Notes under the pieces: model-generated
Databases searched by the model: none
Seen by the model: only the letters and a program-made list of their open reading frames with translations
What the model was told of the DNA's origin: nothing
Shown: positions 13,624 through 36,932 of the stretch, in pieces
How the letters are laid out: each line of letters opens with the position of its first letter
Position numbering within the stretch: the first letter of the stretch is position 1
Made by a program: the position numbers and the translations under genes
Assembly: GCA_004802725.1 (NCBI GenBank)
Contig: SGPM01000274.1
Coordinates: 1-36,932 of the forward strand
Direction: 5' to 3'
Length of the DNA stretch: 36,932 nt
Source of the DNA: Antrodiella citrinella
Taxonomy: Eukaryota > Basidiomycota > Agaricomycetes > Polyporales > Steccherinaceae

Positions 13624-14556
13624 TCAATGCACGAACGGTGATGCGACAGGCTGCAAGAAGTTGCTGGCAGCCGAGAACTCGGGTGCACGAGAGGTCATCA
13701 ACAACCCAACTAGACGTTACAAGGGTCAGTGAACAGATGCGACATACATTGTCATCGCGCCACGTACCGATCAACCCGAACAAGCCCATGATACTGCCAA
13801 ATACTTCAACGATGAGGATCTTGACGAAGAGTTGAGGGTCTGCCGCGTCAGCGAGGGCTGCTGTGGATCCTGTGATGCCGACTGCGACGCCGCACAGGAG
13901 GTTGCAGGTGCCGACGGTGAGGCCGCCCCAGAAGAGGGCGAATCCTGTGAAATAATTCTCTGGGGTGTACATCGCGGCGTCAGGGATGGCGGTCAATTTT
14001 GCAGAGTAGACGATGCCAATGATCTAGGCAACAAAACACATAGTAAGTACGACACCACACAGTAATGGATGAGGAATTAACATACGACACCGTAGATAGC
14101 CACAACTTCGCAGAAGATGATACTAGGAGCATATTAGCGGACATGAACAGCATGACGGTATACTGTATTACCTGATGAGATTCTTGGTCCTAATTCTCGG
14201 AGTTCTTACACCTCCTCCAAGGATTGACGAGCCGGTCACGAAGATACCCCTGCACGAAACAAACGGTCAGCACTTCATCACGACGGAATGATTCCAGCAC
14301 GCACCATCCCGCACCCAGCACGCTCAAACCAATGCACAACCCAATACCCGTCGACGCGAACACATATGGACTCGTCTCCTCCAGGAACCGACCGACGTTG
14401 AACGCTTCACCGGAACCTATACCACCATAAAGTCAGTCAAGTTGAGCAGATTATTAACGGGGTAATGTACGCGCCTGTGAACAGCAAATAGAGCGCAATA
14501 ACTATGACAAGGAATGTAGGAATGCCATAAGAGTAGTAGGAGGTGTAGAAACCCAT
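13624..14556 (-). CDS. VMA16: V-type proton ATPase proteolipid subunit c''
   Basis: Six exons on the minus strand: 14556-14475, 14416-14305, 14249-14172, 14122-14086, 14023-13768 and 13709-13624, giving 216 residues, close to the 213 of yeast Vma16. The subunit sits in the membrane rotor (c-ring) of the vacuolar H+-ATPase and carries protons. Hydrophobic helices are at about 11-28, 49-71, 88-110, 127-155 and 168-194. The proton-carrying acidic residue is expected to be Glu96 in FCEVVAIYG; a second Glu (177) lies in VEVFGSIMG. Other conserved blocks are RAPRI-like [13 protein letters not shown] and [14 protein letters not shown]. The first intron uses a GC donor instead of GT (see findings). 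It is head-to-head with the small GTPase gene, 171 bp between start codons. Confidence 0.93.
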
Positions 14557-18005: not shown

Positions 18006-19115
18006 TCAGACAATGTGACTGATGTCCAACTCGACCTGTAGCAGAAAATTTCAGCAAAGTAGACAACGCGAGGTGTGTTGAGAGCAACTCACCTCGTCCT
18101 GGACAAGCTGAATCTCTTCGTCAAAGCTCGCCACGAAATGTGTGATGTCTTTTACGGCAGCGCTACAGCATACCATACATTTGGGAGATGTTGTTTTAGC
18201 CGTGAGATACCTGTTGAAGACGTCGCTAAGGGTGACCAGGTCTGGATCATACAGTGTCGTGGTCATGCGAGCCAGAACACCTCGCATGTAGTCCGTCCAC
18301 CACGCCTGACGCCACACCTTAGTATCGGTATCTTCCAAGTAATGATGTACCGGGCAATCTTGACCTTCTCCTGCCGCATTTTTGCCGTGATGACTTCCAC
18401 AATACCAAAAGTAAGGGGGGTTACGCCAAGCATGCATCGTACGCCCAGGCCATGCCTTCACAAAGGTGAGTGTGACTTCCATGCATTCCCTGTGATAACA
18501 TAAGAGCGACCGAAGGGTCCGTCCAGAGACGTTATCAAATTCTGCTTGATCTTCCAGAAGCGATTCGTACGGTATTCAAAGAGACTGTCTCGCGGCTTCT
18601 CGCGCTACATCATGATAATGATATCGACAGGCCAACATGTATACCCACACAGGATCGCTTTCTGCAAGGGTGAGCAGAGCAGCACTGGCGAAGTCCTGAG
18701 CCCGGACGATCTCGAACTTTTGGTAGATTTCCAATGTGTCGTGGATGCGGATCAGGTGCTGGGCAGGGTCGGGGAGGTAAGAGGGAGTCCGCATAGGATA
18801 GCAGAACGTCAGCATGAGCTCTAGAGTCCTGCTGTTCTCCGCCATCATGACCTCGGGAGGTTTCTTTTCGACACCGTCATCACGATCCGAGCGATCAGAA
18901 TCGTGGATTTCGCCAGAGGGGAGTGTGAACATGCTGTGGAAGAAGAGAGAAGCCTTTGATATGATAGCCTTGAAAACTCTGAAGCACTGAGTTGTGTCTA
19001 AGCATTTCAGTACTACGTCGGCGTCTTTGTCGTCGAAGGGTAGATCGACGAAAAGTGTAGGCCGCGGAGTTTGCTTGTCTTCAACCTGGCTTTTGAGATC
19101 CGAGGTGTGTGGCAT
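18006..19115 (-). pseudogene. BTB/POZ gene A, interrupted by one in-frame TGA
   Basis: Exon 1 (19115-18093) and exon 2 (18035-18006; donor GTGAGT, acceptor TACAG) together give 350 codons in a single frame except for a TGA at 18578-18576. The N-terminal BTB fold is clear: DADVVLKC, FRVFKAIISKASLFFHSMF, then LTFCYP. After the stop the same frame continues for 31 codons and then through the family's C-terminal module (PYFWYC, a CMVCCSAAVKDITHF motif with paired cysteines, and the last exon VELDISHIV). Related copies B and C have Arg at this point (SLR), so a CGA to TGA change would explain it. It is either a recent pseudogene, a truncated 179-residue BTB-only protein, or a sequencing error. Confidence 0.8.
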
Positions 19116-19621
19116 ATTTCATCCAAGAATTGCTCTGGAGAACTACTGGAGTGAATATCTGTCAGCTTTCACCGATAGTAAGTACGGGAATCGCGCACAC
19201 TCTTCAACGAACCGCGTTGCAGGGAGAGACAAAGGAGAAAGAGACTATGATGCGTTGTCAACAACCCAAGCCTTAGTGCACGTGCACGAACCTCGCGTTG
19301 ACTCCGTGGCCGTTGGAATTCGCACGAGTAGACGCGAGTAGCACCGTCTCACTTGAAGGGATATCACATACAGTAACGCATGTCAATTCCACGAGACTGG
19401 ATACGTGCTACATACAGTGATCCAATATCAGACAGATGGAGTAGCAGAAGAAATATGAAATATCAGGCGTTGAAGATCCAAACTCAGGCTTTCAAAATTC
19501 AAAACAATTGTCGTCAAATGCCACTGGCAGATGCTTTGCATTCAACTCACAAAAACAGCTATCATACTCCGGACTCCGTGATATAAAGCGTCCCAACATC
19601 GAAAATATCCAAGAAACGACA
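19116..19621. other. Intergenic between BTB-A and BTB-B, nothing seen
   Basis: About 500 bp holding the 5' flank of BTB-A and the 3' flank of BTB-B. No open frame or repeat of note. Confidence 0.4.
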
Positions 19622-20652
19622 TCACAACATGATATCGTTCATGTCAAATGCAACCTGCACGGAAAGGTTTTGCATCAGTGAGTCGCAAAAAGTGGCAATA
19701 AAGCGATGTTATCACCTACCTGTCTATGCGCATCATCGATACTTTTGCAAAGGCTTGCAAGGAATCGAGTCACATCAAAGCGAGCACTAGCACGACAGGT
19801 ACTGCATGTCACCTTATCGCTCTCCAAAAAAGCCAACAACATCTCCTCCTTTGACTCCCACTGAACGTCGCCCCATGGCTTCTCGCGGAAGACGGTGGTC
19901 AGACCCGACATGTATCCCAGGAACCATGCATGAGCGACACCATAAGTTGTGTCGGAGTCCGAAGGCCCCCAAGGCCGACAGCGAATATTACCGTTGGGGT
20001 GATCGGTGCGCCAGAAGCAATCGTACATTGCCGCTGCCAGTGCTACTTGGCGCAACGCTAAAAGCGAAGTGTCGCGACACTGCATGTGATACACAGCAAG
20101 GCTCCTGACGGCAAGACCATTTGAGCGATCGAATGGCGTAGGCTGTACAAGGATATCTGGGAGGGAAAAGCGTAGGGAGTACTGTGCCGCTGCTAAGGCT
20201 TCATCTTCGAGCCCAAAGCTGCACGCGATGGTGTAAGCACTGGCAGGGTCTCTCTCCATAAGGTCCTTGAGGCCTTCCAAGGCATATTCAACGACAACAG
20301 AGATTTCGTACTTCTTTCCCGCCTCCAATACGTGTACCGGAATGTCGAAGTCCACAGGAGGATTGGGAATAGGGTAACAGATACGAAGAATCGTATCCAG
20401 AACTCTGTCATCCTCAGCGACGGAAACAACTGGCTTCCCAGCAACGGTTGTTTGATCAGGCTGAGGGAGGGTGAACATGGAGTGGAAGAACGGTGAGGCT
20501 TGGGATAGGATGGCTTTGATGACTGTGAAGTCGACATCGTTGGACGTACGGAGGACGATGTCGGCAACTGGGGAGGACGCGTTGAAAGGATCATCAATGA
20601 CTGGCGCTGGTTCATCAATGACCGATGCTGATGAGCAAAATGAGTCGGACAT
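19622..20652 (-). CDS. BTB/POZ domain protein B (intact)
   Basis: Two exons, 20652-19720 and 19654-19622 (donor GTAGGT, acceptor TGCAG, 65-nt intron), give 321 residues. The BTB core is residues about 30-120: VADIVLRTSNDVDFTVIKAI, LSQASPFFHSMFTLP, then LDTILRICYPIPNP. The later part contains LAVYHMQCRD, an aromatic DCFWRTD block and a paired-cysteine motif CSTCRASARFDVTRF. A 10-codon last exon (VAFDMNDIML) ends the protein. BTB domains dimerise and often bridge substrates to Cullin-3 ligases; that role is inferred from the family only. The frame is open upstream to 20817, including an ATG at 20673. The chosen ATG gives an N-terminus analogous to BTB-C. Confidence 0.85.
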
Positions 20653-21643
20653 CTTGGCAGGCTGCTTGGTCATGTCTTCAGGTAAAGCTCGTTGGAAGGA
20701 ATAGAGACCATGTACCTTGAGTTTATAACCTTCGTGTGTTCTTATTTGATGCTGTTTGGCCACCGCAGCGTCAGCGTGCTCACCAAAGTCGCTCAAAGGA
20801 TGAAGATTCTGACCCACGTCAAGAGCTTGTGAGAAACCAAAGGACAGGAGGTAACACTTAGGCTACCTTGAGATCCTGCGACTGCGGTATCCGATGCATG
20901 GGTGGAACTGGTGATCTCAGCACAGTCTGTTGTGAGAAGTTGAGTTTACCATTCAGTGCCGTGCGACTGCAAAAGGCATTGTGCTCACCATTTGTAGCGT
21001 TCATTCCGCAGACTATTCAGCTGACGACATTTAGCATTGCAGCCTGCGAATCCGCAGACATCAGAACACTATCCCCCGCAGTCCCCTCAAGTCTCGTGCC
21101 AGATCATCCATCCGCCTCCGTAGGTCATGCGTAGAATGCAATCTTCAGCGAGTCTAGAGGCTTGTCAGTCGATCAAGAGGCCCGAGTAGTGGTGCCATAC
21201 CTCATACAACGAACAACCGAGACTTGAACAAATGTAATTGTAACTCGTTGCGATGTTCTTCGTAGTATACGGGGTGACGAAGATGGCAATCGGACTCGGA
21301 GCGTCACGTCAGAATGGTCCTGCAGAAAGAAATTGTCGCGTCAACAACCAAAAGAAATAGACAGCTATGTCCGTACTGACCTCCCTGAATCGAGTTTGTC
21401 ACGTAAATCTGCAAGAAAAGTCTTCAGTGGTGACGCAGGACATATAACGCAATACTTCAGTTCCAAGCGGCGTCGTGTTGACCATCGAGTGGATGACATA
21501 ATGTGCGAGCGTAATGGCTGGGATAGAGTACAAATGAAATGGATTGACAATTGCTCAATACTCATACAAAATTTCCGCCCTCAAGAGTTCAGCGCCCCAT
21601 TAACTTGAAAGGCGACTGAGGGTTTGTGGAGCGATGATGCAGC
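20653..21643. other. Intergenic between BTB-B and BTB-C, no gene seen
   Basis: About 1 kb. A plus-strand frame of 91 codons at 21333-21608 lacks any recognised motif and is judged spurious. No BTB relic was found here by eye. Confidence 0.4.
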
Positions 21644-22641
21644 TCACGTCGACTTGAACTCAAGTGTGACCTACAATAGCACCCTAGGTCAGCGATCCAG
21701 ATAGAAAAGTGCTTTGAACATACATTGTCATGTCCTTCTTGAATGGTGCGGTGGAGGGCAGTGAAGAATCTGTTTATGTCTGTAATCGCTGACATGAGGC
21801 ACGTCATGCACGCAGCCGTAGAATCCATCAGAAACGCCGATACCATACGCTCCTTGAACTCCAGCGGTCCAGTCAACAATGGTCTCTCATGAAATCCCTG
21901 GGTCAAACCGGCTGCGTAGTCCATAAACCACTTCTGAGCGGGACCGTAAGCGCTATTTACCGGCGCTGTGCAGCCACCACGACTGATGTGCTGATAAGAC
22001 CAGAACCATGCAGGGGATGCAGGTTTCACAACTTGTTGAACAGCTGAAAGGGAGACGTCGCGGCACTTGACGTGGTACATGACGAGACTGCTCACCGCCT
22101 GACCAGTCAAGTGATCAAGATGGTGTGACTGTGCAAGGATCTCCACGATAGGAAAACGAAGGGATGATTTGGCAGCTGCAAGAGCTTGATCCTTGAACCT
22201 AAACATGCACGCAATACTGTATGCATGTACGGGCTCTTCATCCACGAGAGCCTTGAGACTATCCGATCCGTGCTGAGTGACTGCACTCATCTCGTACTTC
22301 CTCCCCGTCTCCAACGTGGCCGTCAAGATGATAGGATCAAGCTGAGGATTGGGTACGGGGTAGCAGATACGGAGGATCGTATCGATGACCTTGTCATCCT
22401 CGGTTACAGCAACCACTGGAAGCAGGGACTCGGAGTCTATGGTGTCACCCTGAGGAAGGGAGAATGTTGTCTCAAAGACGGGCGAAGCCTGGCAGAGAAT
22501 GGATTTGAGGACCATGAAGTCCACGTTGTTGGATGTACGAAGGATGATGTCGGCATATTTGGGATTGTTGAACGGAGCCTCAGCGACCGTTGGAGCGACT
22601 GCCGACTTGGATGTGTGATCTGGATCAACCGTGACCGACAT
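21644..22641 (-). CDS. BTB/POZ domain protein C (intact)
   Basis: Two exons, 22641-21724 and 21670-21644 (donor GTATGT, acceptor TGTAG, 53-nt intron), give 314 residues. The BTB domain spans about 27-115: YADIILRTSNNVDFMVLKSI, LCQASPVFETTFSLP, then IDTILRICYPVPNP. The paired-cysteine motif reads CMTCLMSAITDINRF. The last exon codes VTLEFKST. Its closest relatives in the window are B and D (shared ILRICYP and GRKYEM blocks). It stands back-to-back with the relic of a plus-strand BTB gene at 22.8 kb, the same arrangement as D and E. Confidence 0.85.
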
Positions 22642-22785
22642 ATTGCAAGATGGCAGAATGCTGGTGGTACTTGTACTTCGAGTTGATTTGTCTGCTGGAC
22701 GTTCTATTTGTTTTTCTTTGGCTGCAGCTCCTTTTTGTGTGGCGCTCGCTAGTGGCAGGGACTCTCAGACTCAGACTGGCACAGT

Positions 22786-22939
22786 CTAGTATCGAGGACG
22801 TGTTGTTGCGTCGCTCTCAGGGACATATCCCATTTCGTGACGAGCGCAGTCAATCAGAGGTGAGTACTTCCCCTCTAACATGGTGCGTTCGACTGAAAAT
22901 TCTCCTTGTTTAGATTCAGATGTCAGTCACATCGGTTGA
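22786..22939 (+). pseudogene. 3'-end relic of a plus-strand BTB gene (R1)
   Basis: The frame at 22798-22857 reads TCCCVALRDISHFVTSAVNQ, which matches the family's paired-cysteine/DISHF module (compare CYSAAFDDISHFVAEL in BTB-E). It runs into a GTGAGT donor at 22860. After a 54-nt intron-like gap ending TTTAG, bases 22914-22939 match the BTB-E last exon (GATGTCAGTCA followed by CATCGGTTGA) with about a 4-nt deletion. The BTB domain itself is missing upstream. This is the remnant of a gene that once stood divergent to BTB-C, as BTB-E stands to BTB-D. Confidence 0.7.
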
Positions 22940-23471
22940 CTCGTCAGACCCTCAGATTTCAAAAATCCGTTCTTCATTAATCTTTTGTGCTCGACTCTAG
23001 GCATGTGCTCCATCCCCCTTCCGCGGATCATTCCCCTCTATTTCGGCGTGGTGTCGGGTCTCCTTTGATGATAGCATATCACTCTGGGACTGCTCTTGCG
23101 GTTTCAGGATGCATATGTGCGTTTCTTTCTGTAGCGGAAGAGAATATTTTCGTACCAGCTCATGGTCTCCGAGCTCTCACCCTTCAATTCGACAATATTC
23201 TGTGTACGAAACAGAATAACGATTTGTATTAATGTAATGTAAAGAGTGGGATGGAAGTGCAATACACTTTGTACCGATTTGGCTTTCCATGATACTGTGT
23301 AAGTGGAGGTTGACTACAAAAACATGCCATATCTCATTCTGCACGGCCACTCGAGTAATATACATTCGACTACTCGGCACTTCCAACGTTTCCAACGATT
23401 CGAGAAGATGTTCCGTTTATACAAATAAAATCGATACCCGAAAGACCCCCTTGAAGACCTGCAACACAACT
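22940..23471. other. Duplicated non-coding flank
   Basis: No gene. Bases about 22,880-23,270 resemble about 27,830-28,300 (for example CGTTTGACAC/GGTTGACTCG, AGCTCATGG and ACGAAACAGAATAACGAT against ACGAAATGAAATGACAAT). From about 23,280 the sequence instead resembles about 30,985 onward, the 3' flank of Nuc2 (shared CTTTCCATGATACTGT). Confidence 0.5.
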
Positions 23472-26400
23472 CTAGTTCGGTATCCAGGTAAACAAAGCAG
23501 GACTCAAACTCTCGAGAATCCCCTGCCCCTGAAGACAGCTATAAATGTTTCCGAGGTTATTCCCGCAGACGGTATCAAAAACGCCAGTCCCAATGGAATA
23601 CGTATAGCAGCTCTGCTTGACCCCATTCCAATACGTCCCGAGCTCCATCGTGCTGCAATCGACCTGCCAGAACGGACCGGGGCTGTCCCCAGTCCACACG
23701 TACACGCCGGGGCAGATCGTCGCCAAAGAACGCGGTGTGGGGATCTCGAGTCCGAAGAAGGCGTCACTGCCTTCGTTGACGAGCGTGGCGGCGGCATTCG
23801 CGTTTCCGTCGGTGACGAAGTTGTCGCCGATCTTGAGGAAGCCTTGGGAGCCGGCGGGGAAGCAAGCCGCCGCGGGGAAGCTTCCTCCGGTGGGGTTATT
23901 CACGTTGTTCACGTTAGGGTCGAGAGCGGGGTCGACGTAGGGAGGTACGGGAGCCTCGGCGGGAGGCTTGACGTTCCACTTATCAGTGATGGTATTTGCA
24001 GTAGAAGAGATCGAGTTGGAGAGCTGAAAAAGCCAATTGTCAGGTATGAAATACTGGACATAATAATAGAGAACTCACTACCGTACCGAGATTGTTCACC
24101 GCACTGGAAAAGAACTGGGGTCGTTGAAATGGAAAATAGACGTGAACGATGCTAAGGTAGATTGAGCATTGTCAAGAGCAGAGGTCGCAGAATCAAGCGC
24201 ATTGGCGATATCGGTAGCCGTGGTGGCTGCAGCCTTGATGATAAGTATCGGTCAAATGGTTGCATTCTTTCAGTTGTCGGTCAGTACTCACAAGAGCTGC
24301 TGCTGCTGATGCCACATCGGCAGCGGCGGCTTGTGCAGCCGTTTTCTCCGCGGCAGTCAAGGAACTAGTTGCAGCGAGGGCTGTCCAATTGTCGTCAGTA
24401 AGGGACAAGACAGAGAAGGTCAAAACAGCATACCTGTGGCTGCGGCAGAAGCAGTGGCTGTAGCACTGCTAGCTTGAGTCTCCGAATCCGCTTGTGCCGA
24501 ANTGGTCTGCGTCGGACGTGCCGTCACAGTTGTAATTGAACANAAGGGAGTCCTCTGTTGACGCTTGGCGATCGGAGGCACCGTCACGGTAGGAGGGAGA
24601 GTGTTGTTGAATTGGGCGATGTATAGACGACGCAGCAAAGCGTCATCGCTGCCTGACTCGTCGTCTGAGCAAGGACTGCAGTCGAATGGCTTGTAGCTCN
24701 GAGACGGTTGTAGAGCGGTGTCCGTGTCGAGATAATCGGTGTCTTCGTGCAAGCGGATCAGGAGGAGGGACGGCACGGCTGTTAGTGATTTCTTGAAGGA
24801 AGTTCTGCTTCTTGTTGAAGAGCCAAGCCCCGCCAGTGTTCAGAGTACCGACAGCATGGAGATCAGCCGTTGCAGGCCGTGTATCGGTGAGCTGCAAGAG
24901 GTATTTGTGGCACATCCCGGGGTACTGGCTATTGAGATTTCCAGGTTTTTTCCACTGGCTGCGAGCTTCGTTCTCGAGGCGAAGCAGCGAACTAATAGAG
25001 GTTTGAAGCGTCGACTGGAAACTTTGCTCGATTTCGGGGACACNGGCGATCACCGCGCCATTATCAATACCACCCTCGAGTGCAGAGTTGAAGGGGAACT
25101 CGTCGCAAGATACCTTTGAGGTGATGACGTCAGTATATGGATGTCGGAGCTGAAGANGCAAGCCGTACCTTCCAATAAGAAGGATCATGCTGACGGGGGT
25201 CACACTTTCCCGCCGCCTGCAGAGCAGCCTTCTGAGCAGGTGTGCATACGCCTCTGCGGCGTTAACCAGTATTGAATGGATCGTACGTCAGGATGACCTG
25301 ATCGTTCGTGAGGAAGCCGGAGTCACNGATATTCGCGCAAATATTGGGGAAGTAATCGCAGTAGTACGTCAACGTGGGGAGCGGGCTCGGAGTGTCNATA
25401 CTTCCTTTGCACGTGTCGGAGCTGACAGTAGCGAGCACGCTGAACGGATCCAAGTCAAGCAAGGTGGCGGACCCTGCAACGGCATGCAAGGCAGACGATG
25501 TCCGAGACTGAGGTGCACTGCCATTCTGCACCGTGACGGTGGGACTGCCGAACGGCAAGCTGAGCGGAACGGGCGTAGTACCATTATTGATAAACACTGG
25601 AGGATGAATGTTGGGAGGTTGCCATGGTGCCTTTCCGAACGGGAAGGGGTTGGATAAGTTGACATGCGAGAAAGAGAACGAGGACGAGGTGACGTTGACG
25701 TGCATGGNGCCTGAGTCAGCGTTGATCTTCCGAGCAGCAGAGACCTGAACCACAGCGCTCGTAGTATTGTCAGGAGGCTCCTGAGGTGAGTTGTCGTCCA
25801 TGCATAGAGTCGGATCAGTGAGGGGGCAAGNGGAGTTGTAGTGAGGATCCCAATCATCCGTGTTCTCATCGCGGTCGCTGCTTGGGGGGTCACGGATTGC
25901 AGAATCTCCAGGTTGATCAATAATGGTAGGCCACGAGTAGTGCAGCCAGTCGTCCAGGTTCTTGTATGGAATCTGACCATCAACACAGAGAGTGNTGGAA
26001 CAGAACTAGACTCCGCGTGAGAATTTGTCGTTTATAGGCAAAAAGAAATGACATACACCAGCCCAGGTAGCAATTTCTGACCACCATGCTAGAACGTCGT
26101 CACCAGACCTGTTCCATGGTCAATTCAGTTCGCGATCACATCGAACAAGAAGACATACATAGGCCAACTATTGCTACCGGTACCTTGAATGGTACCGTAG
26201 AAGTAGTTGACAAAATCAGCTGCGAAGGTAGCTCATCAGTGTGAGCAGAACTTTGAGGTCTCTCTACGTACTCCATGTAACGGCACAAGCACTGGCATTG
26301 GATGAGGAAGTGCACGAGCTAATCATAGGACTATAGACATAGTAACCGCATACATAAATCTAGTTGTCGACTGTCGAGAGAACGATGAAGGACTTACATT

Positions 26401-26860
26401 GTCGATATCCAGATTTGTCGTCTTTTAAGCACTCCGCACGATCCCGTACAATATAATGTGTCCATAAGAGGTGCCGACTATCGTACTTGTGGGTCAGGAT
26501 TCACTGCTAGAATACGGTGTGCAGAACTCACCCCAGCGCAGGTCGCCGCAGAGAAACATACCGGCGACGACCATACCTCCATTGTTGTGATCTGATTTAT
26601 TAGTGAGTCAGTTACTTCGCTGAAGAAGACGATTGACTAGAGTGCTTACCTGAGTGCTTGAGACTGCACTAATGCAGAGACCAACGAGCGAAGCGCAAGC
26701 AGCCTGCGGAGCTGATATGCACGTTCCAGTAGTCCTGGTTTGACGGGGGGACATGTTCGACCACAGAGCGTTTCACTGAGAGCGGCAATGTCCCAGCTAA
26801 AGCTTTGGGGATACTGTAGCCCAAAGGCAAGACCTGTAGAAGAACTGAGAAGAAATGCAT
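23472..26860 (-). pseudogene. Nuc1: broken copy of secreted NucA/NucB-type nuclease gene
   Basis: Roughly colinear with Nuc2 across exons and introns. It starts at a matching ATG (26860, secretion-signal-like N-terminus) and ends at a matching stop. It keeps the DNase-like motif SCDEFPF..EGG and the C-terminal domain. Three breaks are visible against Nuc2: a run of six G at 26745-26750 is one base longer and shifts exon 1; an extra G at 24749 shifts the frame in the nuclease exon; and a net 7-nt deletion near 24104-24115 shifts the exon before the C-terminal domain. Ten single ambiguous bases fall between 24502 and 25995. It is probably a pseudogene, though homopolymer and ambiguity errors could account for part of this. 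Confidence 0.75.
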
Positions 26861-26905
26861 GCTTGGAGTTGCCGCGCTGAGGTTCCTTCATGCTTTATGG
26901 AGGCA

Positions 26906-26912
26906 TTTTATA
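26906..26912 (-). promoter_or_regulatory. TATA box of Nuc1
   Basis: Reads TATAAAA on the minus strand, 46 nt before the start codon. The same box at the same distance precedes Nuc2, while the surrounding sequence has diverged. Confidence 0.55.
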
Positions 26913-26998
26913 CGGTCGTGACCGTTAAGACACATGACCATGTGGGTCGACCCTCAGAACGAATATGATCCACGAATCTTGGTCTTCGTATTGGACCA

Positions 26999-27262
26999 AT
27001 GGGATCACGACAAGACATCTCGACAGGGCGTGCACCGGACGCGTATGAGCATATTCTGGACATCGTCCCATGGTCAGACCAACGCTCTTCCGTCGACGTC
27101 GAGACTGGAAGACACACCGTAAAACGCACGCAGGTTCTTCATGCGGTCCAGGAACCTCAGGGAGGTTTACTAGGCTGGATGCATTTTAGAGAACCTGGGG
27201 TCCGATGTAGTCTAGAAAATGCAATGTTGAGCCTTCGCAGGATGCGGGCCATCAGGCTCTGA
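26999..27262 (+). CDS. Small divergent ORF upstream of Nuc1, 87 aa
   Basis: Starts 138 bp from the Nuc1 ATG, on the opposite strand. The translation keeps stretches that are also found upstream of Nuc2 in the corresponding frame: GRAPDAYEHILDIVPWSD here against GRAQDAHEYMLNIIPWSD there, and both copies end in AIRL followed by TGA. Differences between the copies fall mostly at first and third codon positions and least at second positions, as expected for a protein-coding past. The Nuc2-side copy is broken by a frameshift and lacks the ATG. No domain is recognised and no signal peptide is evident. It may be a small gene, the 3' exon of a lost gene, or non-coding conserved flank. Confidence 0.35.
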   Translation: MGSRQDISTGRAPDAYEHILDIVPWSDQRSSVDVETGRHTVKRTQVLHAVQEPQGGLLGWMHFREPGVRCSLENAMLSLRRMRAIRL

Positions 27263-27734
27263 GGAAAAACTCATCAGCACTCTGTAGATAGAATACCTCC
27301 AAAGAGCAAAGCAGCGAGAGTGAATCCGAAGAACAACCTGGGCACCTGACGCGCACCGACGCTTGCAGATGTTCCGTTACACCGACGTTGTGTTGTTGAT
27401 CTGGCCACTGGAATCGGGATTACCCAAAATTTGTATAGGTGAGTGGACTTCAAGAGGCTTCATATCTGCCGAAGTTTGACCCCAGGTTTGAGCGAAATGG
27501 GTCCCTGGAGGAATTCGGAGTAAGCCAAGCGTGGTTCGCGAGCACAATATTAAGTTCAGCGGTGTTTGCAAGGAAACATCGTACGGACTCCGGAGTTTGA
27601 AGTGATGGCAGAGCCGAGTGGTGCCGAGACGATGGGCCGAGGATGCCGTAGATGCAGCGGAGCGCGATTCAAACTCCGTAGGATCACCTACGCTCTATAG
27701 AACGAATGTTGTCTGTACTAGAGGTTAACTGTGT
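27263..27734. other. Intergenic, no gene seen
   Basis: Up to about 27,380 the sequence still resembles the region upstream of Nuc2 (to about 35,200). Beyond this is a perfect 10-bp inverted repeat (GGAGTTTGAA at 27592-27601 and its complement at 27668-27677). Nothing else was recognised. Confidence 0.4.
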
Positions 27735-27894
27735 GAGCCTACGCATTTCGTGGCGAAGCTACTTAATGACATTCAGATCAATCATGTGTGCGGTGAGGCG
27801 GTACTTGCCGTCCACGGTGACCGGGCTACCGTGGCGCATTCGACTGAAATGCTCCCTTCTTTAGATTTAGTTAGATGCCAATAACATCGTTTGA
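27735..27894 (+). pseudogene. 3'-end relic of a plus-strand BTB gene (R2)
   Basis: Bases 27744-27791 read HFVAKLLNDIQINHVC, matching HFVAELERKIQLGHAE at the end of BTB-E exon 1, and run into a GTGAGG donor at 27793. After a 72-nt intron-like gap ending TTTAG, 27865-27894 reads I-stop-LDANNIV-stop against IKLDVSHIV in BTB-E, so one Lys codon (AAG) has become TAG. Everything upstream, including the BTB domain, is gone or unrecognisable. Confidence 0.7.
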
Positions 27895-28361
27895 CACAGT
27901 AGACCTTCAGACCTCATGGATTACATTCTTCCTCAACATTTATGATATCATCATGATAATGCTACGTCCTCCCCTTCTACCCCCTTCTTCTTCGGAGTCG
28001 TCCGGCGGGGTCACCAATATTCACTGCCAGTGTCTGGTCTCCTTTCAACATGATCAGACACTTACGACAGTAGCTGTTTCCGTATCACCGCGGGATGACT
28101 CTTGCGACCTCAGAATTTGCGATAATCTATTTCTGTCTGGAGAGAGATCATTCCTGTGCTAGCTCATGGCGGCAACACTCAGCCTTGAGTTCGATACTGT
28201 GCTATAGCTATCTGCACGAAATGAAATGACAATCTGCTCCGGAGAAATGCACCTTTGGATTACGATCTGTATCAATCCTGTGAAGGGTGGGAGGGATGTA
28301 CGACGCATTTCTTGAACATGACGGTACAAATACATGAAACAATGCTTGTGTGAACGGCATA
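27895..28361. other. Duplicated non-coding flank (pairs with 22.9-23.3 kb)
   Basis: No open frame of note. It resembles the sequence following relic R1, showing that relic plus flank was duplicated as a unit. Confidence 0.45.
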
Positions 28362-29498
28362 CTAGGTATTACTTTCCGCCGTTGAAACACCGGGCATGTC
28401 AAGCTGAACCTGAAGCAAGACCGGCCGCGGGATTAGAGGAGGAATTTACGCAAGAAACGAAATAGCTACGTACCTTGCAATGTGCACTTTCTATCCGAGT
28501 CCGAAGCTCTCCGAGAAATTTCGCGATATCCCATATGGAAGAGTCCCGACATCGACTGCATGCGGCAGTAGAGTTTGCCACGAAAGCCGACTTCATGCGC
28601 TCGCTGAGTGTGACCCACCCGGCCCAAACGGCGTCTCCGCAAAGGTGTTTGTCAACGTGGACATGAAGTTCAAGAACCACTGGTGGTGTATGCCATAGAT
28701 TGCACCGGATACGACAGGAGAGCAGCCCATTTCTATAAAATAAGTTTTCGCGCGATCATAGCCTGCATTGTGATGAAGGTCCCAGAAGTACCTCTCGTGC
28801 ATCAGGCTGCGAGCAGCCTGGATGAGAACAAGAAGTGAGGCGTCGCGACATTGAGCGTGATACATAACAAGACTCCGGACTGCGAGACCGTTCGAGTGGT
28901 CAAAGTGTTCCGGCGGCGTGAGAAGCGTTGTGAGAGAGAAACGCAAAGAGAATTTAGCGGCTGCCATAGCTTCGTCCTTACGCCCCGTTATATAGGCAAT
29001 GCAGAATGCCTGGGCAGGGTATTTCTCCACGAGATCATCTATCCTTCCAATGGTATACTCCTTGACTGCCTCCATCTCATACTTCCTTCCGGCCTCTGAT
29101 AAAGCCACCCGGAGTCCGGAGTCAACTCGAGGACTAGGAATAGGATAACAGATACGGAGGATCGTATCCATGATCTTGTCGTCCTCGGAGACGGACCACT
29201 GGCAGCGAAGAGCTTCCGGCCCTGCCGGTAGTCGCAGCCTGAGGCCCCCGAGGAAGGGTGAAAAGACAGGCGACGCCTGGCGCAAGATGAGTTTGAAGAC
29301 TCGAAAGTCGACATTGTTGGATGTGCGGATGATGAGATCGGCGTCGGGATAATGGGTCGCTGGCGATCGTGGGGGATTAATCCGTAAGATGAACGGGATC
29401 GTTCGACGACGACGCGACTTTCGACAAGTAGAATGGCCGTAGCAGATGATTGGGCTTGAAGGTCGCTGACAAAGGTCGCTAGATCTTGCGTTGGCCAC
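28362..29498 (-). pseudogene. BTB/POZ gene D, frameshifted
   Basis: The BTB core is present (DADLIIRTSNNVDFRVFKLI, LRQASPVF, MDTILRICYPIPSP), followed by the family's middle part (LVMYHAQCRD, YFWDLHH). Between about 28,606 and 28,625 the frame shifts; the C-terminal module continues in another frame (LSERMKSAFV, CSRCRDSSIWDIAKF) to a GTACGT donor (exon end 28474) and a last exon at 28409-28362 starting VQLDM. The first 45 residues of the open frame do not resemble other copies, so the true start is uncertain. It may be a pseudogene, a protein truncated before the paired-cysteine motif, or a sequencing error in the GGGCCGGGTGGG tract. Confidence 0.75.
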
Positions 29499-29733
29499 TG
29501 ACCGTGACTGCTGTGAGCATGATCTCGATGATAAGGCGGAAAAAGGTCTTGTTTAGCTATGTTTGCATCAGTCTGCCTGGCTTTGGTTACGCGTCGACGT
29601 CAATGGTGGTGTACACACTCATATTAACAGTGACCCGTTGCTTTGGTCAAGGTACGGAATCTAATAAACCTAGCTATGTCGTTCTCAGTTGACCTTGAAT
29701 ATTAGAACTACAACCGCCGTCTGAAGTTTCGTC
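29499..29733. promoter_or_regulatory. Divergent intergenic region, BTB-D / BTB-E
   Basis: 235 bp between head-to-head start codons. It must hold both promoters if both genes are expressed. No clear TATA box was seen. Confidence 0.35.
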
Positions 29734-30869
29734 ATGTCCTTCAGTATCGCTGTTCCGAGCCTACACAAGGCTGCAAACAATGGCTTGTCGAGCGACTCAA
29801 ATCCAACTCCCACCACTGCAGACCCTCCCTTTGACGATGTCGCTGCCGACGTGATCCTCAGATCCTCAGATCACGTCGACTTTCGCGTCTACAAAACCAT
29901 CCTGTCCCTGGTCTCCCCAATCTTCAGGACCATGTTCATGCTCCCTCAGGAGCAGACACGAGATTCAGAAGGAGAGATCAGATCCGCTAGAGATATCCCC
30001 GTGGTAGAGATGCCGGAACGTAGCGAGAGACTACACCTGATGCTCACGCTGTGTTATCCGCGGTTGCCCGCCATTCGATCGCGGCCCACCTCCGAATCCT
30101 TGGACACACAGCACAGCTTGGTTCGCATTCACGACGCCGTAGAGATCTATAGTAAATTCGACATAGATGAAGCCAAGGAACTTGCCGTCACGACTATGCG
30201 CTCGTTGGCAGAAACCAAACCTGTCTTGATCTACATGCTGGCCTGTCGGTACGGATATCCCCACATTGCTCAAGAAGCAGCGATGTGTTCTCTTCATCGG
30301 CCGATCTCTTCTATCATTTCAGAGGAGATTGACCTGGAAGGAATATCTGCGATCGCTTATAGAGCACTCTTAACATATCACCAAAGGTGTTTTGAGGCGA
30401 CTCTCGCGTGTGTAAACCGATGGCCGTCAGCATGTAACTGGCGCGATGCAGGCTACTTTTGGTTCCATGGGAGCACCCATCGGTTCAAAAGCCAATGCCC
30501 CGTCCAATATTATGTGGATCATGCTGATGATGAAGGGGTGACGCGCAGAGTGCAGACATGGCTCAAAGTCTTCATGGGAGACATCGTCGGGAAGATAACC
30601 AAGCCACGTGGTATTAGAGACGTCCTCACAGTGAGAACTATGCTCCGGCACTACCTCATGTTACCTCCGACAGGGCAGCGGTGCGATTTATGTTACAGTG
30701 CGGCATTCGATGATATATCCCACTTCGTTGCCGAGCTCGAGCGGAAAATCCAACTCGGGCATGCTGAGGTGAGTTGTATCAGGCTTTCAATGCTAGCGCT
30801 CCACCCGTGTCGGTTACTGAAGGTTCGACGCAGATCAAGCTGGATGTCAGTCATATTGTCATGGCATGA
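29734..30869 (+). CDS. BTB/POZ domain protein E (intact)
   Basis: Two exons, 29734-30768 and 30834-30869 (donor GTGAGT, acceptor CGCAG, 65-nt intron), give 356 residues. The BTB domain spans about 30-130: AADVILRSSDHVDFRVYKTI, LSLVSPIFRTMFMLP, then HLMLTLCYPRLP. The rest carries LIYMLACRYGYPHIAQEA, AGYFWFHGS, and the paired-cysteine motif CDLCYSAAFDDISHF. The last exon codes IKLDVSHIVMA. It is closest in the window to BTB-A (shared YMLACRY and VHHY/VQYY blocks), though on the opposite strand. It is convergent with the intact nuclease Nuc2, 320 bp between stop codons. Confidence 0.88.
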
Positions 30870-31189
30870 TTCATTCTCATGGTAGTTTCGACTCGACCAC
30901 CCTGTACTTATAGTACCCAGAACATGTATCACCCCCATGTTGCTTTGCGCCTCGTTCGTATATCATCTATCTGTAACAGTTTAGCTTTCCATGATACTGT
31001 CGAAGTGGAGGTTAGTTAACGAAAACAGGCCATGTCTCACTCTGCACAACCACCCCTGGACATTTTCATTCAATTACATGATACTTTCAACGTTTCCAAA
31101 GATCCGAGAAAACGCTGCGTACAACAAATTCATCACATATAAAAAACCGATAACCGAAAGAACCTTCTGAAGATGTACCTGCAACATAT
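30870..31189. other. Convergent 3' flanks of BTB-E and Nuc2
   Basis: No gene. From about 30,985 it matches the 3' flank of Nuc1 (CTTTCCATGATACTGT, GTGGAGGTTA), which marks one end of the nuclease duplication. Confidence 0.5.
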
Positions 31190-34100
31190 CTAATTCGGTA
31201 CCCAAGTAATGAAAGCAGGATTCAAAGTGTTGAACATCCCCTGCGCCTGAAGACAGCTGTAGATGTTTCCGAGGGTGTTACCGCAGAAGACTCCAAACGT
31301 ATTGGTCCCCGTGTTGGAATACGTATAGCAGCTCTGCTTGACCCCGTTCCAGTATGTCCCAAACTCCATCGTGTTGCAGTCGACCTGCCAGAACGGGCCG
31401 GGGCCGTCCCCGGTCCATTGGTACACGCCAGAGCAAATGGACGCCACAGAACGCGGCGTGGGGATCTCGAGTCCGAAGAAGGCGTCGCTGCCTTCGTTGA
31501 CGAGCGTGGCGGGGGCGTTCCCGTTAGCGTTGGTGAAGAAGACGTCGCCGATCTTAAGGAAGCCTTGAGAGCCAGCGGTGAAGCAGGTGGCCGCAGGGAA
31601 GCCTCCACCGCCGGGACTGTTTACGTTGTTCACGTTGGGGTCGAGAGAAGGGTCAACGTAAGGAGGTACGGGAGCCTCAGTGGGAGGTTTGACGTTCCAC
31701 TTGTCAGTGACGGTATTTGATGTTGAAGAAATGGAGTTGGAGAGCTGAAAACACCAGTTGTTCAGCGTGGAGACCGCGAATCATGTCAGAGAACACACCG
31801 AAGCACCGAGCATGTTCACCGCGCTAGAAGGTGGAGGAGAGCTGGGATCGTTGAAATGGAAAATGGATGTGAACGACGAAAAGATAGATTGGGCATCGTC
31901 AAGAGCGGAGGTAGCGGAATCGAGTGCATTGGCGATATCAGCAGGAGCAGTAGCCGCAGCCTTGACAAAAATCTTCATTAGATAGTTGTGTTTAAGGTTG
32001 ACGGTCAATACTTACAAGGGCTGCTGCTGCTGCCGCGACGTCGGCAGCTGCTGCAGCAGCGGCTTCTGCAGCAGCGGCTTCTGCGGCGGTCAATGCACTA
32101 GTTGCAGCGAGGGCTACCAAGCACTCGTTAATGAGGAACATGACAGAGGATGTCAAATAGCATACCTGCGGCTGCGGCGGCAGCAGCAGCAGCAGCATTA
32201 CTGGCTTGAGTCTCCGAGTCTGCTTGTGCCGCACTGGTCTCCGTCGGACGAGCCGTCACCGTAGTCGTGATCGAGCAAGAGGGACCGCTGCCCTGACGCT
32301 TGACTACAGGGGGTAACGTCACCGTAGGAGGAAGAGCGTTTCTCAAGGTGGTGTTGTTCAGAGATAGACTGCGCAGCAAATCCTCATCGCTGCCTGACTC
32401 ATCGTCTGAGCAAGGGCTGCAGTCGAATGTCTTGTAGCTACGAGACGGTTGGAGAGCGGTGTCCGTGTCGAGATAGTCGGTGTCTTCGTCAAGCGGATCA
32501 GGAGGAGGCACGGCACGGCTGTTGGTGAGTTCTTGGAGGAAGTTCTGCTGCTGGCCTGAGAGCCATGCAGCTCCTGTGTCAAGCGTACCAACGGCGTGGA
32601 GGTCAGCAGTAGGAGGACGCGTGTCGGTGAGTTGCAGAAGGTACTTGTGGCACATCCCGGGGAACTGGCTCCCAAGACTTCCAGCTTTTTTCCACTGGCT
32701 GCGAGCTTCATTCTCTTCGCGAAGTAGTGTACTGATAGAGGTTTGAAGTGTAGACTGGAAACTTTGCTCGATCTCGGGGACACCGGCGATCACCGCGCCG
32801 TTGGCAAGACCGCCCTCGAGTGCAGAGTTGAAGGGGAACTCGTCGCAAGATACCTTCGAGATGATGATGTCAGTAGATACATATTGAGAGTCAAGACAGA
32901 GGTTGTACCTTCCAATAAGAGGGGTCGTGCTGGCGAGGGTCACACTTTCCCGCCGCCTGCAGTATAGCTTTCTGAGCAGGCGTGCACACTCCTCTACGAC
33001 GCGTACCGGTGTTGAACGGGTCGTATGTCAAGATGACCTGATCGTTCGTGAGGAAACCAGAACCTCGTATATTTGCGCAAATATTGGGCAAGTAGTCGCA
33101 ATAGTACGTCAACGTGGGGAGCGGGTTTGGAGTGTCAATACTGCCTTTGCAATTGTCGGAGCGGACGGCAGGAAGAACCCTGAACGGATCCGCGTCGAGC
33201 AAGGTGGCGGACCCTGCAACGGCATGCGAGGCAGATGAAGTCCGAGACTGAGGCGCACCGTTCTGCACCGTGACCGTAGGACTGCCGAAGGTGAGGTTGA
33301 GCGGAACGGGCGTAGTGCCATTATTGATGAACACTGGAGGAGGGATATTGGGGGGTTGCCACGACGCCTTCCCGAATGGGAAAGGGTTGGACAAATTGAC
33401 ATGCGAGAAAGAGAATACAGACGAGTTGACATTGATGTGCACAGCGCCTGAGTCAGCGTTGATCTTCCGAGCAGCAGAGACCTGAACCACGGCGCTCGTG
33501 GTATTGTCAGGAGGCTCCTGAGGCGAGTTGTCGTCCACGCATAGAGTCGGATCGGTGAATGGGCAAGCGGAGTTATAGTGAGGATCCCAATCATCCGTGT
33601 TCTCGTCACGGTCGCTGCTCGGGGGGTCACGGATTGCAGGGTCTCCAGGTTGACTGACAATGGTGGACCACGAAAAGTGCAGCCAGTCGTTCAGGTTCGT
33701 GTACGGAATTTGACCATCAACACAGAGATTCCCGGAACAAAACTTTACTTCGTGTGAGAGATTGTCGCTCGTGAGCAGCAAGAAAAGGAATGACATACAC
33801 CAGTCCAGGTAGCGATTGACGACCACCATGCCAGAACGTCGTCACCAGACCTATTCATAATCAATTCGATTCGCGATGATTTAAGACGAGACCTACAAAG
33901 GGAAGCTGTTTGTACCGGTACCTTGAATAGTGTTGTAGAAGTAGTTGACAAAATCGGCTGTACATGTGAAGAAAGTTCATCAGCTTGAGCGGAGTTCCAA
34001 AGCATGCAGGACATACTCCATGTGACGGGACAACCATTGGGCTGGAATGCGCACGATCCGACCATAGGAGCGTAGACCTTGTGAAATTATTGGTGAAACA

Positions 34101-34600
34101 GCCCAACTGTCGACTCATTCATCCTAGTACTCACATTGTCGTAGTCCAAACTAGTCAAGGAGTCAAGCGCATTGCACGATCCCGCGCAACAGACTGCGTC
34201 CACCAGAGGTGCCGACTAACGGTGATGTGTAGAGTCAGGTCTCGCTATTTGACAGCTACGGTGTACAGCACTCACCCCAGCGCATGTCGCTGCAGCAAAA
34301 CAAACGGGCGACGACCATAAGTCAATCGCTGTGATCTAGGTTCTCGGTGAGTCGGTCACTTCGTCGAAGGAGATGACTTAGATAACTTACCTGTCCGCTT
34401 CCGACCGCACTGATACAGAGGCCGACGAGCGAGGCGCAAGCAGCCTGTGGGGCTGAGATGCACGTTCCAGTAGTCGTGGATTGACGAGGGACATGTTCAA
34501 CCACAGACCGTTCCACTGAAAGCGGCAATGTCCCAGCTAGAGCTTTAGGGATACCGTAGCCCAAAGGCAAGGCATGTAGGAGAACTGTAGAGAAACGCAT
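31190..34600 (-). CDS. Nuc2: secreted protein with NucA/NucB-type DNase domain (intact)
   Basis: Eleven exons: 34600-34391, 34335-34276, 34215-34135, 34077-34017, 33957-33897, 33850-33799, 33742-32909, 32853-32166, 32113-32016, 31960-31799 and 31744-31190, giving 953 residues with every junction in phase. Residues 1-22 look like a secretion signal (MRFSTVLLHALPLGYGIPKALA). A Cys-rich part with about a dozen Cys follows (45-175), then a Pro/Asn/Ser-rich part. The nuclease-like core (about 395-560) has LTYYCDY, TGTRRRGVC, then SCDEFPFNSALEGG (455-468) and NGAVIAGVPEIEQSFQ, the pattern of the NucA/NucB deoxyribonuclease family. Then come a disordered acidic region, an Ala-rich helix (about 665-740) and a novel 185-residue C-terminal domain (FGLEIPTPRS, GPFWQVDC, TYWNGVKQSCYTYS). 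The expected role is an extracellular DNase; activity is inferred from the family only. Confidence 0.8.
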
Positions 34601-34645
34601 GCTTGGAGTTGCTGCGCTGACTATCCTTCGTGCTTTCTGAAGACA

Positions 34646-34652
34646 TTTTATA
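34646..34652 (-). promoter_or_regulatory. TATA box of Nuc2
   Basis: Reads TATAAAA on the minus strand, 46 nt before the start codon, identical in spacing to the Nuc1 box. Confidence 0.55.
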
Positions 34653-34738
34653 CGTTTGGGCTCGTTGAGACGTAGGAGCATCTGGGTAGATCCACGGAAC
34701 GCGTATGATCAACGTACCTTGGTCTTCTTGTTCGGCGG

Positions 34739-35009
34739 TCGGGATTACGACAAAGTATCTCAGCAGGACGCGCACAGGACGCACATGAGTATATGCTGAA
34801 CATCATCCCATGGTCAGACAAAACCTCTTCTGTACTAGAAGACACACCGTATAGCGAACGACTCGTGCGCTCACTCAGTACTGAATGATGCATTCCAGGA
34901 ACCTCGGGAGTGCCACTGGACTGGGCGCATTCCGGGAGAACTTGGGGTCCGATGCTGCCTTGAAAGCGGGATGCTGAACCTTTCGCGGGGTGCAGCCATC
35001 AGGCTTTGA
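34739..35009 (+). pseudogene. Broken counterpart of the small divergent ORF upstream of Nuc2
   Basis: The frame from 34739 reads RQSISAGRAQDAHEYMLN and then IIPWSDKTSSV, parallel to the 87-aa ORF upstream of Nuc1. It is closed by a TGA near 34886. The 3' half continues in another frame (FQEPREC.., ELGVRCCLES, ending AIRL and TGA at 35007-35009), matching the Nuc1-side copy. It lacks the ATG. This is evidence that the unit was duplicated together with the nuclease. Confidence 0.4.
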
Positions 35010-36207
35010 GGAAGAACTCGTCGCCATCCAGCGAGTAGAAATCATTTCTGAATGAGCATTTCGATGTGGACGAAACAATCACCCAGGTGTGAGTACTATC
35101 CGCTGGTACGCACAATGCCCGTAGAATCCGGTGAGCAAAACAGCGAGAGTGAACATCTTGGGCGCCCGATGTCCAGTGCAGGCGTTCCGTTACTACTTCC
35201 GTAGGACTCGGAGAGTGGGCGCGCCATGACAGATCTTCAGAAGCAAGTTGCCCGTGGCGGAGAACACAAGAGAACACATGGCTACCAGTCGTTCCAAAAA
35301 TAACTTTCCAGAGTGATGACGGTCCCGCAACTTTTGAATGTCCTTGTGGGCGACAAAGGCTCGTTCCTCGGCCATGCCAAATCCAGAGGGTCAAGCGCAC
35401 TATGTCGATAGAAAACAATAGGCACTGAGCGTTTGTGAGCCGCGTTCTCTGATGGATGTGTTCTTGGCAAGAGTCAAAGTTCTCAAAGCGAAAGTAAGTC
35501 GCCCACTTTAGTCTACGATGCTACCAGCGGATACTTAGGTCAGCTTGACGTCACATTCCTTAGAATGTACGGGCTTATGGCCGAACCTCGGAGGGATACG
35601 GGAGGAAAACAGGTCTGTGACCGCGACGGAGCAACCTGACGGGAAGGAGGTGAACAATAAGAATCTGTACTCCACAGATCACTCATCAGCTCACCTGCGG
35701 CGACCTCTTCCTAGCGAATACGAATACCGATGCAGCGACTCTGTGGAATTCCTTCGGTACCTGGGTAAAACTCCTTGACTTCCATATCCTAATACGCAGA
35801 CCTCTTCAACACTGCGGCCTGCGCAAGAGAGTTCGCAAAGCGGTGTGGACTGCCGGTCTTCGCGGATGAGCGAAAACCAGTGGTGTGCCGCAGAAGAAGC
35901 ATCGGAGAGGGACCTGCTGTGGCTGCGATAAGTAGTCTGGGGCAAAGAAAACCTCGTGAAGAAGCACGGTACTCAGTATTGTTCAACCTTTAACGTCGAA
36001 TCGTACTCAGTATCCCTCAGACCAGATGAGGCACATTGAAATGATATAAAAACAACCTCGTAAGACGAGACAGAGCATTTGCCATCCACTAACATCTTCA
36101 GAGATCTTCAGTGACTCTCTATACCTTCAAATATCGGATACAGGTGAGCATGATGCATAAATTCGTCGTAATGAACACGAAATAAGTAAGGACTCACGCT
36201 CGTACAC
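35010..36207. other. Intergenic, no gene seen
   Basis: Similarity to the Nuc1 upstream flank fades by about 35,200. Short open frames only. A plus-strand ATATAAAAA (about 36043-36051) looks like a TATA box, but no supportable coding sequence follows it; a short transcript starting near 36,080 with a GTGAGC donor at about 36,146 is possible. Confidence 0.35.
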
Positions 36208-36624
36208 CTATAGTGATGATGATGAGAAGGATGAGTGCAGTATCCAAGTGCTGTACGATTGCACGTATACACTGACGAGGTTGTTTGGCAGTGAGGTCAC
36301 AACGTCGACTGTGTTCAACTTCAACGCGGCAGAGAGCCTCAGGCACATTCCGCCACCGTGGACGTCATGGCGATGGTCAAAATTGAAGAGATGATCGATG
36401 AGTGGCGGCGAATTCGCTGCTCGCGCCGATAGCCTTGGCAATGGTTTATAGGTTTGCGAATGCTGTACATGACAAATTGAAAGAGACTCACCACATGCTT
36501 TTGCTGCAAGATGCAGAATCTCGTCCGGAATGCATTCTCCGAGACTGACCCTCGCAGAGTCCTGCAGTACTACTACGCGAGGGCGTGTATCATTTCTTCT
36601 TCGAATCGGGGCCAATTGGCCCAT
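36208..36624 (-). CDS. Weak hypothetical ORF near the right edge
   Basis: Open frame from MGQLAPIRRRND. It contains SLGECIPDEILHLAAKAC, which faintly recalls the start of a fungal F-box (PDEIL). A GTGAGT donor follows immediately (36492-36487) and a CCAAG acceptor-like site lies about 65 nt on, so the real gene may be spliced here with a different tail. The frame stays open without splicing to 36208. No family can be assigned with confidence; it may be a decayed or chance frame. Confidence 0.3.
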   Translation of the reverse strand: MGQLAPIRRRNDTRPRVVVLQDSARVSLGECIPDEILHLAAKACGESLSICHVQHSQTYKPLPRLSARAANSPPLIDHLFNFDHRHDVHGGGMCLRLSAALKLNTVDVVTSLPNNLVSVYVQSYSTWILHSSFSSSSL

Positions 36625-36932
36625 TGGAGCTGTGATCCGGGCATGCATGAGTACAAGATAGTACGACAACCTCATGTAGTAGCTTTTGAAGGCAGCCAGG
36701 AAGAATCTGCACTTAGCCGCAGTGCAATGCATTTGCTAGTCTCGTTCCCCATCAGGAAAAACCTACTTCTCTAAATCACACCGACATCAGACAAAATTAC
36801 AAGGGACCCATGTAATGTCGATAATTTTGTTGAATCTCTCTGACACTTGTAATATCGCATGCATTTATCATGGTTCAGTGTAATCATAGTATAGCTTCAA
36901 GTTCCATTGATTGTTTTGTATAATCATAGTGC
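36625..36932. other. Right edge, AT-rich, no gene seen
   Basis: About 300 bp of AT-rich sequence. A short direct repeat (TAATCATAGT) occurs at about 36881 and 36921. Nothing else. Confidence 0.4.

What the first reader, a model, noticed from the sequence alone, without database searches (positions are those of the whole stretch)
18006..35009. Interleaved BTB / secreted-nuclease duplication locus
Five BTB genes, two BTB relics, two NucA/NucB-like genes and two small divergent ORFs share one 17-kb block with a recurring order: BTB(-), BTB(+), nuclease(-), small ORF(+). The nuclease segment about 23,280-27,380 is colinear with about 30,985-35,200, flanks included. Intact and broken copies coexist, the mark of rapid birth-and-death evolution typical of recognition, competition or defence loci. 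Whether BTB proteins and the nuclease work together is pure inference; repeated co-duplication is the only hint.
Basis: partly seen in the sequence, partly recalled or inferred. Interest (0 to 1): 0.75.

Follow-up and report, generated by a model that had tools for sequence, protein, structure and literature searches.

The report
Duplicated nuclease inside BTB gene array
A wood-rotting fungus carries two neighbouring copies of a gene for a probably secreted DNA-cutting enzyme, one of them broken, inside a cluster of unrelated and partly broken BTB genes; the mixing looks like ordinary local gene duplication and decay rather than a joint system.

Summary
The duplication is real; a joint system is not supported. 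The contig is from Antrodiella citrinella (Polyporales). A 4.0-kb segment with one NucA/NucB-family gene occurs twice (23270-27275, 30972-35022; 78%). The right copy reads as an intact 11-exon gene; the left has one in-frame stop, four frame-shifting gaps and one lost splice acceptor. Five BTB loci (three open, two broken) and two short BTB(+) 3' remnants surround them. The order BTB(-), BTB(+), nuclease(-) does occur twice, but on the left the BTB(+) is only a remnant; the "small ORF" is not conserved.

The duplicated unit held the nuclease plus that remnant and its downstream sequence (75% alike at 22831-23226 and 27744-28236). In copy 2 about 2.7 kb with a BTB pair separates the two, by insertion there or deletion from copy 1. 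The pair is not a co-duplicate of any other BTB here: nuclease dS is 0.49, all ten BTB pairs 1.48 to saturated. Genome-wide, 2 of 2 NucA/NucB matches lie here; 45 of 49 BTB matches lie on 24 other contigs. Ordinary birth-and-death cluster.

The parts
18051..19115 (-). BTB locus B1 (type II), broken by an in-frame stop
   Evidence: whole-genome search reports 1 TGA inside the match; Pfam BTB 29.6 bits on 18576-19115
19675..20673 (-). BTB gene B2 (type I), open frame of 332 codons
   Evidence: Pfam BTB 31.9 bits, cut-off 20.5
21589..22641 (-). BTB gene B3 (type I), open frame; annotated publicly as EUX98_g7021 of Antrodiella citrinella (314 aa)
   Evidence: Pfam BTB 34.7 bits; P0021, 100% over 88% of the frame, on a contig of 36,932 bases
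22801..22845 (+). remnant of the 3' end of a type II BTB gene
   Evidence: tblastn E 0.008, 26.6 bits, above 40 of 40 shuffles
22831..23269 (.). R, end of that remnant and its downstream sequence, next to the left nuclease copy
   Evidence: 75.4% to R' over 386 aligned columns; strict alignment ends at 23226
23270..27275 (.). duplicated segment, copy 1
23472..26860 (-). left NucA/NucB-family copy, pseudogene (one in-frame stop, four frame-shifting gaps, one lost splice acceptor); holds 10 of the window's 11 ambiguous bases
   Evidence: PF14040 match 34.5 bits in the remnant
27744..28310 (.). R', second copy of the BTB 3' remnant (about 27741-27788, by eye) with its downstream sequence
   Evidence: strict alignment ends at 28236
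28311..30971 (.). block with the divergent BTB pair B4/B5 that lies between R' and the right nuclease copy; absent between R and the left copy (left edge uncertain, 28237-28311)
28399..29492 (-). BTB locus B4 (type I), broken
   Evidence: Pfam BTB 13.6 bits on 28593-29492, under the cut-off
29734..30885 (+). BTB gene B5 (type II), open frame of 383 codons
   Evidence: Pfam BTB 25.0 bits
30972..35022 (.). duplicated segment, copy 2
31190..34600 (-). right NucA/NucB-family gene: 11 exons, 10 GT-AG introns of 46-60 bases, 953 codons, hydrophobic N terminus (model made here)
   Evidence: PF14040 34.7 bits, cut-off 23.8; relatives in other Agaricomycetes, e.g. 49% over 96% in Artomyces

Best explanation
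A local cluster formed by ordinary tandem duplication and decay. An old array of BTB genes (two subfamilies, with many relatives elsewhere in the genome) lies next to a gene for a probably secreted NucA/NucB-type DNase. One segment of about 4.4 kb, holding the DNase gene, its flanks and the already truncated 3' end of a BTB(+) gene, was duplicated once in tandem (likeness of R/R' and of the nuclease flanks, 74-77%, shown; that it was one event is inferred). A block of about 2.7 kb with a divergent BTB pair was inserted between R' and the nuclease of copy 2, or deleted from copy 1 (junction shown to within about 75 bases, direction not). One DNase copy then decayed; the pair's dN/dS of 0.21 says that selection kept the protein for most of its history. 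Function, inferred: the DNase acts outside the cell on free DNA (nutrient scavenging or competition); the BTB proteins act inside as substrate adaptors of Cul3-type ubiquitin ligases. They share an address, not a pathway.
For: Duplicated segment of 78%; R/R' 75.4%, score 151 against a maximum of 43 in 50 shuffles; nuclease dS 0.49 against BTB dS 1.48 to saturated in 10 of 10 pairs, 1.48 being B2/B3, both open; 2 of 2 PF14040 matches in this contig, and all 9 exon matches of the Artomyces homologue; 45 of 49 BTB matches on 24 other contigs; the type II gene B5 has a relative on contig C462 (40%, 225.3 bits) as close as B1 (41%, 225.8 bits); lesions of the left copy; the nuclease family recurs in Artomyces, Mycena and polypores in an unrooted tree compatible with vertical descent.
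Against: A BTB piece was duplicated with the nuclease (R/R'), so linkage is older than the duplication. BTB dS values are near saturation, seven of the ten pairs hold at least one broken locus (B1 or B4), and a high local rate cannot be excluded. If the ancestral unit held the B4/B5 pair, that pair was once co-duplicated and then lost from copy 1. Two of the six lesions of the left copy (the stop and one frame-shifting gap) lie in the stretch with ambiguous bases and might be assembly error; four lie outside it.
Confidence: 0.88

Rival explanations
1. BTB genes and secreted nuclease form a recognition, competition or defence module whose parts are duplicated together.
For: BTB(-), BTB(+) and nuclease(-) stand in the same order twice, and a BTB 3' remnant was duplicated with the nuclease.
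Against: The BTB genes in matching places are not recent copies, the remnant and B5 are not alike at the DNA level; no nuclease match at any other BTB match of the genome. In the one species present in both homologue lists, Trametes meyenii, the two proteins lie on contigs of different length (824,384 and 964,075). Different cell compartments are expected (inference).
Confidence: 0.04
2. The ancestral unit held the BTB pair between the BTB remnant and the nuclease and was duplicated whole; copy 1 later lost the pair. Still hitch-hiking, no joint function.
For: Copy 2 shows R', BTB pair and nuclease in one run; a deletion in copy 1 is as simple as an insertion in copy 2.
Against: No trace of the pair was found between R and the left nuclease copy; the best DNA match of the block elsewhere in the genome is the coding part of B3 at 65%.
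Confidence: 0.3
3. The lesions of the left nuclease copy are an assembly artefact from mixed reads of a further copy or allele.
For: 10 of the 11 ambiguous bases of the window fall between 24502 and 25995 (chance about 1e-13, but the stretch was defined after the fact).
Against: Three frame-shifting gaps and the changed splice acceptor lie outside that stretch; introns and flanks of the copies differ by 23-33%, so the copy itself is real.
Confidence: 0.1

Closest known systems
NucA/NucB deoxyribonucleases (Pfam PF14040; Bacillus NucB, PMC5758888, passages seen)
   Same: Pfam match over the cut-off; a conserved Asp-Glu pair in SCDEFP, taken here as the counterpart of the DRDE motif
   Different: 953 codons instead of about 110 residues in the mature bacterial enzyme, with further N-terminal, alanine-rich helical and C-terminal parts; no DNRG motif by letters; an invariant Glu (position 470 of P0001) stands near the place expected for its Asn
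Agaricomycete NucA/NucB-domain proteins of about 900 aa (e.g. P0001 Artomyces pyxidatus, P0010 Dichomitus squalens)
   Same: 38-53% identity in the best local alignments to the 20 listed, covering 50-99% of the query
   Different: nothing essential seen; a member of that family, here duplicated
BTB/POZ proteins of mushroom-forming fungi
   Same: BTB domain and a helical C-terminal half; scattered and partly clustered in the genome
   Different: for the type I gene B3 the protein search, limited to relatives sharing short words, listed one relative besides itself (34%); the own genome holds more distant ones (51 matches in all, the window's own included)

Membership tests
Pfam PF14040 DNase_NucA_NucB | profile score over the curated cut-off | tested here: met
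   34.7 bits, cut-off 23.8; the core segments of 9 of the 20 homologues and of the right gene, 10 of 10 given, match at E 1 or better
Pfam PF14040 DNase_NucA_NucB | Asp-Glu of motif 1 (DRDE in PMC5758888) | tested here: met
   SCDEFP invariant in 20 of 20 homologues and present in the right gene; the correspondence to DRDE is by motif, not by structure
Pfam PF14040 DNase_NucA_NucB | metal-site Asn of motif 2 (DNRG in PMC5758888) | tested here: inconclusive
   DNRG not seen in the core segment of the 20 homologues; no solved NucB chain was matched and the structure model was poor (mean pLDDT 52.9), so the equivalent residue is not fixed
Pfam PF14040 DNase_NucA_NucB | metal-dependent DNase activity | not testable with these tools
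   needs an enzyme assay
BTB/POZ (PF00651) | profile score over the cut-off | tested here: met
   4 of 5 loci over 20.5 bits; B4, broken, at 13.6
Cul3 ubiquitin ligase adaptor | fold and Cul3-binding surface | tested here: inconclusive
   model of B3 (P0021, mean pLDDT 69.9) ranks SPOP and KBTBD2 first, but the best E is 2.6e-3 with TM 0.26, and no match reaches E 0.001
BTB-nuclease system | co-duplication of whole BTB genes with the nuclease | tested here: not met
   dS 0.49 against 1.48 to saturated; only a BTB 3' remnant was duplicated with it
BTB-nuclease system | repeated linkage at other loci of the same genome | tested here: not met
   2 of 2 nuclease matches here; 45 of 49 BTB matches on 24 contigs without one
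BTB-nuclease system | linkage conserved in other Agaricomycetes | not testable with these tools
   no fungal genome collection with gene order is held here

The most novel reading that the evidence does not exclude
The BTB(-)/BTB(+) pair belongs to the nuclease as a regulated unit (for example controlling its release or protecting the producer): both nuclease copies had such a pair on the same side, and the left pair decayed to B3 and a BTB(+) remnant when the left nuclease decayed.
Probability: 0.04. Interest if true: 0.7.

Novelty: new member of a known kind. Interest (0 to 1): 0.15.

Why it matters
As a system it does not hold. What remains useful is a worked example of how two unrelated gene families come to look interleaved, and a pointer to a probably secreted NucA/NucB-domain family of about 900 aa, shared by many Agaricomycetes and mostly listed under 'hypothetical' or domain names, whose metal site may differ from bacterial NucB.

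Tried and rejected
Whole-genome DNA search with the R' region (27700-28330) returned only itself, not even R, so it cannot show that R is rare. Flank 27276-27743 against 35023-36932: 116.0 against a shuffled maximum of 115.0 (30 shuffles); with other scoring and wider stretches 56 against 43 (20 shuffles): weak likeness at best. In one search the pair 'dnB2/upB1' scored high only because I gave overlapping stretches; dropped. The nuclease-family model (P0001 with 19 relatives) was too poor to search with. Searches of solved structures found no NucB chain. A scan of bacterial and archaeal contigs with one core pattern gave 10 pattern matches, 0 confirmed. NCBIfam: 0 families for 3 proteins. Rfam and tRNA: 0. 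Ten paper searches: 34, 35, 36, 40, 41, 44, 45, 47, 65, 68. None for a BTB-NucA link in fungi in the held library (btb, nuca, tandem, fungi: 0; nuca nucb, fungal: 0); for BTB families searches gave 0, one search gave 2, one search gave 8, one search gave 1. I saw passages only of PMC5758888, PMC7550596 (one passage, not used) and PMC8893723 (one passage); all others as listings.

Full report
Source. The window is stretch 1-36932 of contig C195 of a 30.0-Mb, 602-contig genome. The BTB frame at 21589-22641 matches EUX98_g7021 of Antrodiella citrinella, 100% over 88% of the frame, on a contig of 36,932 bases. The species is a polypore of the Steccherinaceae, order Polyporales.

The nuclease duplication. 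BLASTN of the window on itself lists four off-diagonal matches at E 1e-5 or better: 23270-27275 with 30972-35022 (78.1% over 4,101 columns), two between BTB coding parts (B3/B4 and B2/B4, 65-67%), and 22875-22956 with 27826-27911 (75%). A whole-genome DNA search with the left nuclease segment finds these two places only. The right copy reads as a gene of 11 exons and 10 GT-AG introns of 46-60 bases, 953 codons, with one Pfam match, PF14040, 34.7 bits against a cut-off of 23.8. It begins with a hydrophobic stretch; secretion is inference, no signal-peptide program was run. The left copy has the same start and stop, 10 of 10 donors and 9 of 10 acceptors, but one in-frame stop and four frame-shifting gaps; it is a pseudogene. 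Ten of the window's 11 ambiguous bases lie at 24502-25995; two of its six lesions lie there and four outside. Over 930 codon pairs dS is 0.49 and dN 0.10 (Nei-Gojobori).

The BTB loci. Translated comparison finds five. Type I: 19675-20673(-), 21589-22641(-), 28399-29492(-, broken). Type II: 18051-19115(-, in-frame stop), 29734-30885(+). All ten pairs have pS of 0.65-0.75 and dS from 1.48 to saturated; seven of the ten pairs hold a broken locus, but the three pairs of open genes (B2/B3 1.48, B2/B5 2.38, B3/B5 2.15) agree. So the BTB genes parted long before the nuclease copies did, and none of the five lies in the homologous nuclease segment. Caveat: dS near saturation is imprecise.

The BTB remnants. 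At 22801-22845(+) 15 residues match the conserved end of the type II protein B1 (60%, E 0.008; 26.6 bits, best of 40 shuffles 24.6). In the other repeat copy a like reading lies at about 27741-27788(+), seen by eye; by itself the stretch 27276-28398 gives no translated match above shuffles (23.9 bits against 25.8). Both regions also align weakly but above shuffles with the 3' region of B1 (50 against 39, 44 against 33; 50 shuffles), and neither aligns with the 3' region of B5 (31 against 40, 28 against 42).

How the interleaving arose. From the remnants on, 22831-23226 aligns with 27744-28236 (75.4% of 386 aligned columns; score 151, maximum of 50 shuffles 43), much like the nuclease flanks (74-77%), so one duplication of about 4.4 kb explains both. 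With cheaper gaps the match runs on to 23269/28310, the end of the stretch that I gave on the left. In copy 1 the nuclease segment follows at 23270. In copy 2 it starts only at 30972; the 2.66-2.74 kb between hold the pair B4(-)/B5(+). One insertion into copy 2 or one deletion from copy 1 accounts for this; the data do not tell which.

Distribution. PF14040 has 2 matches in the genome, both here; the Artomyces homologue as query gives 9 exon matches, all here. BTB has 49 exon matches, a lower bound, on 25 contigs; 4 are in the window, 45 on 24 other contigs. Other contigs carry BTB clusters without a nuclease match (C16 8, C161 7 matches). In public proteins the nuclease has 20 listed relatives, 38-53% identical in the best local alignments (only the 7,994 candidates sharing most words were scored, so the list is not complete). 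The unrooted tree of 21 rows separates the polypores listed from Mycena plus Artomyces, with the Antrodiella gene between, which fits vertical descent. Only Trametes meyenii is in both this list and the list of 31 relatives of B5, on contigs of different length.

Function. Motif 1 of NucB (Asp-Glu) appears kept, SCDEFP in 20 of 20 homologues; motif 2 (DNRG in PMC5758888, passages seen) is not seen. The structure model of the nuclease family was too poor to settle it. The model of B3 ranks SPOP and KBTBD2 first, but weakly. BTB/POZ and F-box proteins are named among the ubiquitination genes of complex-multicellularity orthogroups in PMC8893723 (one passage seen). The likeliest reading is a DNase outside the cell and ubiquitin-ligase adaptors inside it, with no shared pathway; both roles are inferred.

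Verdict. This is an ordinary gene cluster in flux.

Noticed in passing
window 24502-25995: Ten of the 11 ambiguous bases of the window fall in the left nuclease copy; perhaps reads of a further copy or allele collapsed here.
   Followed up: partly
window 31190-34600: NucA/NucB-domain family of about 900 aa in Agaricomycetes with further conserved parts; an invariant Glu (position 470 of P0001) near the place expected for the metal-site Asn of bacterial NucB.
   Followed up: partly
P0003, P0016 and P0018 (Mycena amicta), P0014 and P0020 (Trametes gibbosa): Several members of the nuclease family in one species (three and two); P0003 and P0018 lie on contigs of the same length (469,484), perhaps another neighbouring duplicate.
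   Followed up: no
G000 C161:2048-3244 and C357:17358-18554: BTB matches with identical scores and lengths on two contigs: a recent segmental duplication or redundant assembly.
   Followed up: no
window 8280-10373 (-), 12190-12978 (+), 13616-13972 (-): Neighbouring frames with Pfam matches to F-box-like, TFIIA alpha/beta and ATP synthase subunit C.
   Followed up: partly
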